Shown here: one piece after another, positions 42,701 to 51,700 of the stretch
Layout: each line of letters starts with the position of its first letter
Position numbering within the stretch: the stretch's first letter is position 1
Assembly: GCA_029582155.1 (NCBI GenBank)
Contig: CM055901.1
Span: forward strand, 51,465,206 to 51,529,205
From: Panopea generosa
Taxonomy: Eukaryota; Mollusca; Bivalvia; Adapedonta; Hiatellidae
Length of the DNA stretch: 64,000 bases
Reading direction: 5' to 3'
Translations under genes and position numbers: made by a program
The notes under the pieces: model-generated
Databases searched by the model: none
The model's input: only the letters and a program-made list of their open reading frames with translations
What the model was told of the DNA's origin: nothing

Positions 42701-45700
42701 CTATCTTCCTGCTCTGTATCTTGGCAGCTTTCCTCAATAATGATAAAAACTGTTACACATAGCTCTCCTTGTTTTGGAGAGCAGAAAAGTCCACCCAAAA
42801 GTACCTGTACTGTAGGTCAATGTCTGACTGAATGACAATTGATTGTTTATAATTAATAACTAAGTTTTGACACAGGCCATATCTCATAGTCGCCCTACTT
42901 AAGAAAATGTACATTATTAACTTTTTCAATAAAAAAAACTAAAAAAAACCTATTTAAATTTGTAATTTACATGAATTGTTATATAAAGAAAAAATACAAC
43001 ATCTTATATTTAAAAAAAATCATGCTGGCATTAATATATAAAGAAAAAATACTTACTCTTTCATAAAAAAAATATCATGCTGGAATAACTATTTAAAGAA
43101 AAAATATGACTTCTTTCATACAAAAATATCATGCTGGAATTAATATATAAAGAAAAAATATTACCTCTTTCATAAAAAAAACCAGGACACTCTACTGACT
43201 CATAGTGGCCATAGCACTTTTTGAAATTCTCCTATGCAATAGAAACATCGGGATGGGGTCATTTTTAACCCTAGGGACACCTTTTGAACAAAACTATAGT
43301 TGGTTATCATTACTACATAAACATTTTGAAAATCTGTTGGCCCGTTCATGAAAAGAAGATTTTTTTAAGTTTTGGACTATTTTTAGTAACAGTGGCCATC
43401 TTGAATTAAAGATAGAAAAAAAAATCTTCTCTATAGTCTCCTATGCAATAGAAACAGCCATGTGAAGTTTCAGTTTAATTGGCCTAGTGGTTTCAGAATA
43501 AATTAAAAAAAAAGAGAATTTTCTGTTTTCCCATAGTATCCCTTTGTAAAATTCAAAGTCCCCTTACAGGGCCCCTATAAATTTTAGCCCCTAAATTCTT
43601 ATCTGCAATCAAACCCCTACACATAGGGATAATTTATGTGAAATATGAACAAATCTGACATATCAGTTCTTAAGAAAATAATTTTAGTAATTCCCAATTT
43701 TTACCCTTTTGGGGCCCCTCCTGACCCCTTAAAACAGTGGAACCCAGTCATTTTTAAAAATCTGAACCTCCTTCACTAACAATGCTTCTGTGAAGATACA
43801 GGCAAAATCATTTCCATTTTTAAAAAAAAAAAAATATTACAACGACATGTGTCCCCTAATTCAACCTGTGGGGCGGGGTCATTTCTAACCCTAGGGACAC
43901 CATTTGAACAAATCTAACAAAACTATAGTTGGTTATCATTACTACATAAACATTTTGAAAATCTGTTCAGCTTCATGAGAAGAAGATTTTTAAAGGTTTG
44001 GACTGTTTTTCAGTAACGGCAGCCATTTTGAATTTCAGATAAAAAAAAATATCTTCTGTATAGTCTCCTATGCAATAGAAACATCCATGTGAAGTTTCAG
44101 TTTAGTTGGTCTACCGTAAATCTCCAAGTATAAACCACACCCAAGTATAATCTGCAGGTGATTTTGAAGCCAAAACTGGTCGAAAAAAGCTAGTATCTGT
44201 CCATAATCCGCAGGCATGAATCAGATGAATCAGCTGTTTACCACATCCATCATTTTGAAATCCCAACCAAAGTGAAAGATGAATTTTGATTGGCTAATTA
44301 TTGAGTAACGAAATCGAGACTGGTGTACTGCATAACTTTGTAAAAACGTAGGTAAAACGTTTTGATGTGATGTATAGTGTGTTGGAGACAATAAAACTTG
44401 CAAGTATAAAATGGTGTTACCGAAATTATTTTTATGTTTGTGTATTTGGGTAAAATTTTAATTAATCAAATACCACCATGCACAAAATTTTAATTGATAA
44501 ATTACCACCATGCACTAAATAAAAAAAATAGGTTAAAATCCCCTTTCTTCCTTTCTTTTATTGTAACACTTTGCAGAATTACTAGTCAGGGTGTTTACCT
44601 ACTTTCTTTGAAGTACGTTTTCAGAGAAAATGCTGCTAACAGACGACAGACGACGGACAATGCGCCATCGCATAAGCACTTCTGGCCTTTGGCCAGTAGA
44701 GCTAAAAATCATGCTGGAATAAATATATAAAGAAAAAATATTACCTCTTTAATAAAAAAATACCATGCTGGAATTAATAAATAAAGAAAAAATATTACCG
44801 CATTCATAAAAAAATATCATGTTGGAAATAATATATAAAGAAAAAATATTATTTCTTTCAAAAATAAAAAAATCATGCTGGCATTAATATATAAAGAAAA
44901 AGTATAAGCTCTGTCACAAAAAAAATATCATGCTGGAATAAATATATAAAGAAAAAATATAACTTCTTTCATACAAAAATATCATGCTGGAATTAACATA
45001 TAATGAAAAAATATTACTTCTTTCATAAAAAAATCATGCTGGAATTAATATATAAAGACAAAATATAACCTCTTTCTTACAAAAAAAAATATCATGCGTT
45101 TTTTCCTCATAACAACCAAAAAAAAAAATCCCAACAAAACAACAAATTGTTACCAGGAGAGGACGGGCAATATTCGTCATCCTCAATTATTTTAGCAAGT
45201 CCAAAATCAGCAACTTTGACAACGTTATTATACCCCACCAAAACGTTTCGAGCGGCAAGATCTCTGTGAATCAGCTTATGTTGTTCTAAATAGGACATGC
45301 CGCTAGCCACCTAGAATTATGAGAATTACAAATACTGTAAGTAACTGTGGAAAAAAAATATTGTCAGATTTATCTCCCTTTGCAAGTGATGTCACAGTTG
45401 CTCCCTTTGGAGAGATGTAATCTGAAAAGTAGGATGACTGGTCTGGGAGTTTCTCTACATTTATGTAAACAGTTTGGGTACCTATACTGTTGCACCATAT
45501 GGTAACAGAAGCTGTCTTCAGAAGACAAAATATTTTTTTAGAGTTTTTCGTTAATGGCAAAAATAATGGTAAATTAGAAGTCTTCCAAAATACAGGTAAC
45601 GATTTCATAGGAGTACACTACTTTCTTTTATTTAAAGATTCCTATAGAGCTTTGAGTTTCTCAAAGACTTATAAGTTGTATGGTATTTAGTGTCACTTTC

Positions 45701-48700: not shown

Positions 48701-51700
48701 ATGGAATGTAACAGACAGACTGTACAAGTAGTCCACTAATATATACTGCCTTTTTTAGAAAGTATCGTTAACTCAGAGCATAACTGCACATTAGTGTTAT
48801 CCATGTTAAATTGGAAATAATCAAAGCATATAGTTCTCTACTGATGTCAGCAAAGGTAGAAATACTAATACTAATCTAGCCTAAGTGACTGTCGTAAAAC
48901 CATGTTAAAAGCAAATACCGTTTATTCCCTAATTAACGCCCCCAGGGGCGTTACATTTTACAAGGTTTGGGCGTTTATAAAAGATAAAAAAAGCAAATTT
49001 AACAACAGTTAAAAATACAATAAAACCAATAAAACCATGGAAAAAAACTTAAATCCAGTTTAGATCCCCGAAAAAGTGGTTCAGAATTATTTTAGAGTGA
49101 ATGAAATAATCGACATAGGATGAAAAAAAGCTGAAAATCTGTATGAAATTACTAGCCTGCGTACTGCAATATCCGAATTTATGGTCATTGTACTCTTCAC
49201 TTTAAATCACTTGGACGCTTGCTCTTATCAACGTGAAACAATGAGCTTTCAGCGTACACAGACTAACCGCATTTTCCGACGTTTTGGGATGTTTTAATCG
49301 GCAGACGGCATTTTTACTAGTATTAAACAGCAAATATGGGGAAGTATTTGTTCAACCAAAAGTAGTAAAGTGGTCACCCAAGATATAAACAATGGGTTAA
49401 AGAGTCCAAAGGTAATAAACACTTCGCTAATTGTTGACTGTGTAACAAATTAATCGATCAGGGAAAGATGGGCGAATACGCACTCAAATCGCATATACGT
49501 TTTGTATATTAATTTTCCAGAAAAATAAGTTGGGGCGTTTATTAGAGTGGGGGCATTTATAAGGGAATATACGGTAGCTGTTCAAAGATTATCTCGATCT
49601 TTATATATAACTGGAGTATGTGTATATATACTGGGATAAAAAAATGAAAGCAACAATCAAAAACATCCACTATCCTTTACCACAAAATTAAAAATATTAA
49701 AAATATCGGAAACTGTTTCCATTAAATCTCTTTTAGTTTGCCACAACAGACAATGTAGACCCCAATCAGCCTAGGAGTGACACTATGATTAATGTATACT
49801 TCGTGTGGAGTTCAGCTGCGGAATTATCATTAAACCCTTCTATTTTATAATGGACTGGTCCACATTTATGGAACAGTACAGTACAACAGAACTATAATAT
49901 TGATGAGAATGGGTTGTCTTAAAGGCAATGTGCCAAAAAAAAAAAAAAAATGGCCATAAATGTTTAAAAAATATATATATAAAAAAAACAAAATTAAAAT
50001 AAACACAAAGCATCTTACTATCATTCAAGAATTAAATACAAATTATTTGTATTATTAATTTATTAATTGAAACTTCGCCAAAACATGACCAAAGACAGTA
50101 TTTTAATCGGAATGGTAAACTTAAAACAAAATGTCTGTTTTAAATATCACAAACATATTGCTTGGTGACCATCACCTGGTCATTCAGATTCTTTTTAAGA
50201 TAAAAAAAATCCAACAATATGTAACCAATTTAACGGATCAAACTGAAATCTAAATGAAATCACACAACTTATTTCATACATTACAAAATATGTTGCAATT
50301 TTTGGCGGGAAATCTATTTATGTCTAACCTGGACACACAAGTCAAGAAAGAAAACCCTTTTCAATCTATTATTTTGTCATATTTAAGAAGATATCCTTGT
50401 GGCATTGAAGGCTCAATGATAATATATGGGTATAATATTTCTTTTGCTAGCTATAAAATTTTGAAGAACCCCCCCCCCCCCCCCCAAATTTACTTCCTTT
50501 AACTTAATGTCACTTTGAGAAAGAAGAATGACATTTTTTTTTTTTAATTTATTCAATATTGAAATGAATTATTGCTAACTTGAATGTCTGCTTCTATAAT
50601 GACAGCTAGATACTTGTTTAATAATTTAGCGCTTTTTAATATTTTCATGTGACGAAGAATAATGGATTGTGCTTCGTGTGATTAATGCATTAGGCAGGAG
50701 GAACAAGCGTTAGTGTTTCAATAAGGTATTGCTGATCCAAACACGCATTTACCGTGCTTCGGATTGTACTCGTCATCTTCGATAATTTTCGCCAGACCAA
50801 AGTCGGCAACTTTCACAATACTATTATCACCGACTAAAATATTTCTTGCTGCAAGATCTCGATGGATTAATTTATTTTGCTCTAAGTATGACATGCCACT
50901 TGCAATCTGCAATATTTATAATAAATATTTTAGAATAACATTAAAATGTGATGTCTCTGAAAGGGAAAACATGATATTTTGAACGATAAATATAATTGGA
51001 GGTGACAATTCAAAGGAAAGTATGTTGGATGCACAAGCCACAGGCAGCAGGTTTGATCTTAGCCTCAACATCATGGCCTCTGAAAAACATCATTCAGTAC
51101 TGCTTCAACCCAGGAAATATTACTTGAGAACAATTCATTGATGACCAAGCTGAAACAAATAAGTACACTCCGGTACCGTGATATAAAGCAAATTCCATTA
51201 TAACTTGGTTTTTGCTTGGCTCACACTTTTTCGCCAATTAGCCTTGATTAGAACAAACTGTTATGACCATTACCTCATGGTGGTTTTAAAGATAGTTTCA
51301 GTAATTGATTTATGCCAGCATTGAGTATTAACAGTTTGTAATAATCAGTGTGATGAATGTTGAACGTGCCAAATATGGAAGCCATTTGCAAACTTTGTTA
51401 TTATCGAGTGATCATGTGATCAAGCAACCAAGTGCAAGTTTTTATATAGTTATATAGACATCACTCTTTACATCCGGGTGTAAAAAACAGTGTCTATATC
51501 AAAACATGAAAATGTTTTTCTATTTTTTTTTCTTTTTTATTAATTATATACACATCTAAGTGTATCAGTTGTAACCAAATACGAAGTATATCACATTACA
51601 ATGCAAACATTACCACTCACAAAAGAGTCGGACAGCAAAATAGGTGTGAACAACCAACTTTTTCAAGGTATTTATCTCTATAATGCGATCCGTGTATAGC

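What the first reader, a model, noticed from the sequence alone, without database searches (positions are those of the whole stretch)
45154..50906. Mutually exclusive activation-loop exons in a Src-family kinase
Two intact versions (C1, C2) of the exon that encodes [11 protein letters not shown] and the activation-loop tyrosine lie 5.4 kb apart. They share entry phase 0 and exit phase 1. Seen directly: either one alone keeps the frame; skipping both breaks it; including both gives GGT GGC TAG, an immediate stop. Exons B and D are single-copy, so this is one gene with alternative exons and not two genes. Established precedent: FYN has mutually exclusive exons 7A/7B, but those lie at the linker/N-lobe. 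Swapping the catalytic and activation-loop exon in a Src kinase is, to my knowledge, not described.
Basis: partly seen in the sequence, partly recalled or inferred. Interest (0 to 1): 0.92.

Follow-up and report, generated by a model that had tools for sequence, protein, structure and literature searches.

The report
Clam Src kinase with swappable exons
A bivalve gene for a Src-type signalling enzyme carries two interchangeable versions of the exon for its catalytic and activation loops, and also two interchangeable final exons, so one gene can probably make several differently tuned kinases.

Summary
All four C/E combinations are open; both C exons together give GGT GGC TAG, neither gives a frameshift. 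The copies are old and constrained: dN 0.077 (C) and 0.177 (E), synonymous sites saturated, homology confined to exons. C1 differs mainly just after the activation-loop Tyr (EYCPSSPG against EYNPKHG). Both tail types occur in full-length SFKs of imparidentian bivalves. In the rest of the protein PSS-tailed rows are not one clade (p-AU 0.00046; 3.2e-5 with Mya paralogues), so two ancient genes do not explain it. Best reading: conserved mutually exclusive activation-loop exons plus alternative last exons. Against: no RNA from this species; without the tail, exon C no longer unites the PSS rows. Ten paper searches showed no description. New variant of a known kind (FYN 7A/7B, MAPK14 9a/9b).

The parts
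62838..63002 (-). Exon A: SH2-kinase linker and glycine-rich loop ([11 protein letters not shown]); the gene continues upstream beyond the window
   Evidence: single copy in the window
53898..54154 (-). Exon B: N-lobe, VAIK lysine, hinge; single copy in the window; ends in phase 0
50753..50906 (-). Exon C2 (154 nt): [21 protein letters not shown]; ancestral-like version
   Evidence: tail type seen in P0004, P0006, P0008, P0009, P0044 and in Mya P0014
45154..45310 (-). Exon C1 (157 nt): [22 protein letters not shown]; one codon longer, derived version
   Evidence: tail type seen in P0001, P0002, P0003, P0005, P0007
40081..40212 (-). Exon D (132 nt): P+1 loop KFPIKW, SPE in place of APE, helix F; single copy in the window
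38243..38448 (-). Exon E2: proximal terminal exon, C-lobe end and tail [14 protein letters not shown]; ancestral-like (VERGYRM)
36497..36705 (-). Exon E1: distal terminal exon, C-lobe end and tail [15 protein letters not shown]; derived (VPNGYRM)
37801..37806 (-). AATAAA about 0.44 kb after the E2 stop (candidate poly(A) signal)
   Evidence: motif match only, one of several AATAAA nearby
36364..36369 (-). AATAAA about 0.13 kb after the E1 stop (candidate poly(A) signal)
   Evidence: motif match only

Best explanation
This is one Src-family kinase gene of an imparidentian (heterodont) bivalve. An old tandem duplication of the catalytic/activation-loop exon gave a mutually exclusive pair (C2 or C1). 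A separate old duplication of the last exon gave alternative terminal exons (E2 or E1). Shown from sequence: the exons, phases, intact reading frames, neighbours single copy in the window, and long purifying selection. Inferred: the spliceosome picks one C exon; double inclusion and skipping give premature stops and would be removed by nonsense-mediated decay; choice of E2 or E1 is coupled to poly(A) site choice. The proteins share the N-lobe, HRD and DFG (and, from relatives, SH3/SH2). They differ mainly in the residues after the autophosphorylated Tyr, next to the P+1 loop, and in the C-lobe end and tail. The likely effect is to tune trans-autophosphorylation, phosphatase or substrate recognition and tail regulation, rather than to switch catalysis on or off.
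For: Exons, phases and isoform frames. A, B, D once and C, E twice in the window. The order C2-C1-D-E2-E1 is not that of a tandem gene copy. dN 0.077 (C) and 0.177 (E) with pS 1.0 and 0.96. Homology stops at the exon borders (exon identity 0.72 and 0.68; flanks 0.29-0.35; random introns 0.28). PSS-type tails in 5 of 339 fetched proteins: Mactra, Dreissena, Mya and two unnamed contigs. Exon-C tree: the 6 PSS rows (window C1 included) are one side of a branch, 94/84. Rest-of-protein tree: PSS needs 4 changes in 18 rows and one clade is rejected, p-AU 0.00046; with three Mya paralogues added, 5 changes in 21 rows, p-AU 3.2e-5. Within Mya, P0007 (PSS) and P0014 (NPKHG) branch together at 100/100, so one species does hold both tails. 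Terminal exons: P0004 and the Ruditapes protein P0044 are identical on either side of one odd stretch but end in E2 and E1 respectively.
Against: No RNA from this species; the genome search did not complete (8 tries). No relative was seen to use both C types from one gene copy; 90% clustering of the protein set would hide such isoforms. Without the residues after the Tyr, the C-exon tree does not unite the PSS rows (3 changes, 0% of bootstraps with one), and P0002 (PSS) then groups with venerid NPKHG rows at 99/77: gene conversion, poor resolution or convergence. A second site looks diagnostic in 10 chosen rows (RN-V-L with PSS, RN-I-L with NPKHG), but three Mya paralogues left out of that count all have RN-V-L, one of them with NPKHG (P0014). 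P0044 is an imperfect gene model. The C1 donor is weak (6 of 9 consensus positions).
Confidence: 0.86

Rival explanations
1. Two tandem Src-family genes, one broken, or two genes merged by misassembly, each owning one C and one E exon.
For: Mya has four closely related SFK proteins on contigs listed with the same length (P0007, P0013, P0014, P0017), which branch together, so gene copies do arise in this group.
Against: A, B and D occur once in the window. The order C2-C1-D-E2-E1 does not fit a block copy. In relatives, tail type does not follow the rest of the protein and all four C/E pairings occur, E type judged by eye.
Confidence: 0.06
2. One copy is a silent relic or a recent or haplotype duplicate that is never spliced in.
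For: No RNA for this species; the C1 donor is weak.
Against: Saturated synonymous sites with dN 0.077 cannot come from a recent or neutral copy; introns are not homologous; the C1-type protein is found in five relatives.
Confidence: 0.05
3. The PSS tail arose more than once, so the match between species is convergence and the exon pair in the window is a lineage-specific duplicate.
For: With the tail cut off, the PSS rows scatter. Tails also vary among Mya paralogues (TAHG, NPKHG, KSAHG).
Against: The same extra residue and the same PSS in all six PSS exons, all with RN-V-L (window C1; five relatives); with the tail kept they form one group, 94/84; synonymous sites in the window are saturated, so the pair is not young.
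Confidence: 0.12

Closest known systems
FYN exons 7A/7B (FynB/FynT)
   Same: Src-family kinase; tandem homologous exons used one at a time (passages of PMC9741552; PMC5224494).
   Different: FYN's pair covers the SH2-kinase linker and the N-lobe with the ATP site, which by its sequence is exon A here and is single copy in the window. Here the pair is the catalytic and activation-loop exon, and the last exon is also duplicated.
MAPK14 (p38 alpha) exons 9a/9b and JNK1/2 exons 6a/6b
   Same: Alternative exons of kinases: MAPK14 9a/9b are listed among tandem homologous exons (PMC5224494, table passage); JNK 6a/6b are given with altered substrate binding, and JNK also has alternative C-termini (PMC8699841, table passage). 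That both pairs lie in the kinase domain and that JNK 6a/6b are homologous is partly recalled.
   Different: Ser/Thr MAP kinases. In zebrafish Jnk1 the activation loop lies in the part common to all isoforms (PMC7259801, passage). Here the exchanged exon contains the activation-loop Tyr itself.
U2AF1 exons Ab/3
   Same: Transcripts with both or neither duplicated exon contain stops and are lowered by NMD (PMC5224494, passage), the same frame logic.
   Different: A splicing factor, not a kinase.

Membership tests
Src-family tyrosine kinase | Tyrosine kinase domain closest to Src | tested here: met
   Pfam PF07714, 295.8 bits (C1-E1 form); best PDB rows are Src (C2-E2 form)
Src-family tyrosine kinase | [11 protein letters not shown] and activation-loop Tyr in both C exons | tested here: met
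Src-family tyrosine kinase | C-terminal regulatory Tyr | tested here: met
   TEPSY in E2, TEPNY in E1; E2 tail aligned to Src TEPQY
Src-family tyrosine kinase | N-terminal SH3-SH2 and myristoylation Gly | not testable with these tools
   Upstream exons lie outside the window; the closest relatives have SH3 and SH2 Pfam domains and begin MG
Mutually exclusive tandem-duplicated exons | Homologous adjacent exons with equal phases | tested here: met
Mutually exclusive tandem-duplicated exons | Both or neither breaks the frame | tested here: met
Mutually exclusive tandem-duplicated exons | Transcripts with exactly one of the two | tested here: inconclusive
   Full-length proteins of each type in relatives; no RNA for this species
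Alternative last exons | Two terminal exons with own stop and poly(A) signal | tested here: met
   stops; poly(A) by AATAAA motif only
Alternative last exons | Both used by one gene | tested here: inconclusive
   P0004 against P0044 in a relative; P0044 has an odd segment and P0004 has no species name

The most novel reading that the evidence does not exclude
Imparidentian (heterodont) bivalves have kept, since their common ancestor, a two-by-two exon cassette in one Src gene (activation-loop exon C1 or C2 with terminal exon E1 or E2). It encodes four kinases that differ only in the activation segment and C-lobe/tail. Gene conversion keeps the catalytic part of the C pair alike while selection keeps the post-Tyr tails apart.
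Probability: 0.5. Interest if true: 0.75.

Novelty: new variant of a known kind. Interest (0 to 1): 0.66.

Why it matters
The activation loop is the central switch of a protein kinase and is normally fixed within a gene. A gene that has kept two versions over long times, with the rest of the protein held constant, is a natural experiment on which residues after the autophosphorylation Tyr matter. Together with alternative C-lobe/tail exons, it would show that Src diversification, which vertebrates reached by gene duplication and FYN 7A/7B, was reached in clams by exon duplication inside the catalytic domain.

Tried and rejected
Two-gene, relic and haplotype readings were tested and given low odds. 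The region-limited protein search and the fragment search were meant to find further proteins of the C1 type; among the proteins each listed, none new had the PSS tail; both lists are capped at 120 (of 1021 and 2764). Structure models of one NPKHG protein (P0004, mean pLDDT 75.7) and one PSS protein (P0002, 74.5) have similar lists of secondary-structure elements; I did not superpose them and ran no fold search. The activation segment is under pLDDT 50 in both, over 401-417 in P0004 and over 398-402 and 404-434 in P0002; with this low confidence I read nothing into the difference. Splice-site strengths gave no clear rule for exon choice. I did not look for intronic pairing elements that could enforce the choice.

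Rows left out: the exon-C tree used 32 of the 120 proteins listed, chosen by hand (molluscs, Lingula, Owenia), plus the two window exons. One search used 18 of these 32; it left out the three Mya paralogues, P0044 (odd segment), five gastropods, the chiton, two oyster-like rows, Lingula and Owenia, and the window. One search put the three Mya paralogues back. The E tree used 29 of the 120 plus the two window exons; E1-type rows were assigned by eye from the VPRGYRM-like motif, and Dreissena's terminal exon (VENGYRM) was counted as not E1. The count covered 10 rows and left out the three Mya paralogues, one of which contradicts it.

Full report
Observation. The gene lies on the - strand and runs off the window's right end. 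Reading the seven exons from the sequence and joining them in a script gives A 63002-62838, B 54154-53898, C2 50906-50753 (154 nt), C1 45310-45154 (157 nt), D 40212-40081 (132 nt), E2 38448-38243 and E1 36705-36497. The introns have GT-AG borders. Both C exons enter in phase 0 and leave in phase 1. The four forms with one C and one E are open to the stop. C2+C1 gives GGT GGC TAG. With neither C, the frame shifts and stops after five codons.

What was missed. The terminal exon is duplicated too: E2 and E1, 76% identical in protein (tblastn), each with its own stop and an AATAAA downstream (0.44 and 0.13 kb, motif only). tblastn of all seven exon peptides against the whole window finds A, B and D once and C and E twice; every other match has E of 0.33 or worse. 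The order C2-C1-D-E2-E1 points to two independent exon duplications, not one block copy.

Age and selection. Over 49 aligned codons, C1 and C2 have pS 1.0 and dN 0.077. Over 66 codons, E1 and E2 have pS 0.96 and dN 0.177. In C, synonymous change is spread along the exon. Identity is 0.72 (C) and 0.68 (E) in the exons, 0.29-0.35 in 100-nt flanks and 0.28 for random intron pairs. A haplotype duplicate, a recent copy or a relic would not look like this.

What differs. [11 protein letters not shown] and EDDEY are identical in C1 and C2. Seven of the 49 aligned residues differ, and then the tail: the segment after the Tyr is NPKHG in C2 and CPSSPG in C1, one residue longer, directly before NKFPIKW. 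Src has TARQG there (1fmk row).

Relatives. A protein search with the C1-E1 form (120 of 6041 hits listed) found full-length SFKs of both kinds. PSS type: Mactra antiquata, Dreissena polymorpha isoform X3, Mya arenaria isoform X2 and two unnamed 'lgn' proteins (P0002, P0003). NPKHG type in the same clade: Mercenaria mercenaria isoform X2, Ruditapes philippinarum and three 'lgn' proteins (P0004, P0008, P0009). The five named species are all Imparidentia by the NCBI taxonomy; the 'lgn' rows are placed with them only by the trees. In all, 5 of 339 fetched proteins have the PSS tail. The five 'lgn' proteins are 514-525 aa, their longest listed contigs 1.8-3.5 kb, too short for this gene with introns, so I take them as transcripts (inference). 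The pairings seen, E judged by eye, are PSS-E1 (Mactra, Mya), PSS with a non-E1 end (P0002, P0003, Dreissena), NPKHG-E2 (P0004, P0006, P0008, P0009) and NPKHG-E1 (P0044). P0004 and P0044 are identical apart from one odd stretch in P0044's N-lobe and the terminal exon, E2 against E1.

Trees. On exon C alone the six PSS rows fall together (94/84, 92% of 200 bootstrap trees). On exon E the four E1 rows do (94/88, 92%). Neither reaches the program's starred level. On the rest of the protein, the nine Imparidentia-like rows form one clade (100/99) but the PSS label needs four changes, and holding PSS together is rejected, p-AU 0.00046. With three Mya paralogues added, five changes, p-AU 3.2e-5. So exon type does not follow the gene, as expected if each gene holds both exons and each listed protein shows one isoform. 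In Mya, P0007 (PSS) and P0014 (NPKHG) sit together at 100/100: one species has both tails, though in separate gene copies. The window groups with this clade (99 SH-aLRT). The unionid outgroup is Palaeoheterodonta.

Results against. If the residues after the Tyr are removed, exon C no longer unites the PSS rows. P0002 then groups with venerid NPKHG rows (99/77), and winC1 lies nearest P0003 and winC2. Only 47 columns remain. Possible causes are poor resolution, conversion of the catalytic part between the two exons within lineages, or repeated origin of the tail. In ten chosen rows RN-V-L goes with PSS and RN-I-L with NPKHG, as in the two window exons, but the three Mya paralogues all have RN-V-L, one with NPKHG, so this second mark is imperfect.

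Mechanism. Most likely the cell splices in one C exon; the frame makes both or neither unproductive, as described for U2AF1 (PMC5224494, passages). The choice of E sets the C-lobe end and tail. The functional target is probably the segment between the autophosphorylated Tyr and the P+1 loop. AlphaFold models of one protein of each type have similar core elements and low confidence in this segment, so the functional step is inference.

Known cases. FYN 7A/7B covers the linker and N-lobe (PMC9741552, passages). MAPK14 9a/9b and JNK 6a/6b are kinase exon pairs (passages), and in zebrafish Jnk1 the activation loop is in the common part (PMC7259801, passages). Passages of PMC5740500 and PMC9013439 name no such case. 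The listings of ten full-text searches showed no activation-loop exon pair in a Src kinase and no bivalve SFK isoform study; some listings were capped (30 of 36, 10 of 16,840, 8 of 14). Subscription papers are mostly not in that library, so absence there is weak evidence.

Limits. No RNA for it was reachable. The whole-genome search did not complete. That this clade is several hundred million years old is recalled and comes from no call.

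Noticed in passing
window 14226-17722 +: Syntenin (SDCBP)-like gene: PDZ exons at 15731-15958 and 17504-17722 (Pfam PDZ) and an upstream reading frame with [14 protein letters not shown] that had no Pfam match. The name is recalled. From memory, human LYN and SDCBP are also near each other, so this may be an old linkage.
   Followed up: partly
window 14015-14272: A 129-bp tandem duplication (97% matches; my note 3 wrongly says exact) that includes the apparent 3' splice site and start of the syntenin-like N-terminal exon.
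   Followed up: no
window 18296-18449: Three 51-bp copies (97% matches), each with TTTCAGGA, a possible tripled acceptor site.
   Followed up: no
window 23938-25253 and 41153-42165: A 147-bp satellite and its neighbour occur as inverted copies about 16 kb apart, with an identical 84-aa reading frame in both; probably a mobile element.
   Followed up: no
window 46355-47784 and 48199-48747: Two minisatellite arrays (34/101/135 bp and 62 bp units) take up about 2 kb of the 5.4-kb intron between C2 and C1.
   Followed up: no
P0007, P0013, P0014, P0017 (Mya arenaria): Four closely similar Mya SFK proteins, on contigs listed with the same length, branch together (100/100) yet have different activation-loop tails (TPSSAG, TAHG, NPKHG, KSAHG): recent gene copies that may each have fixed a different loop.
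   Followed up: partly
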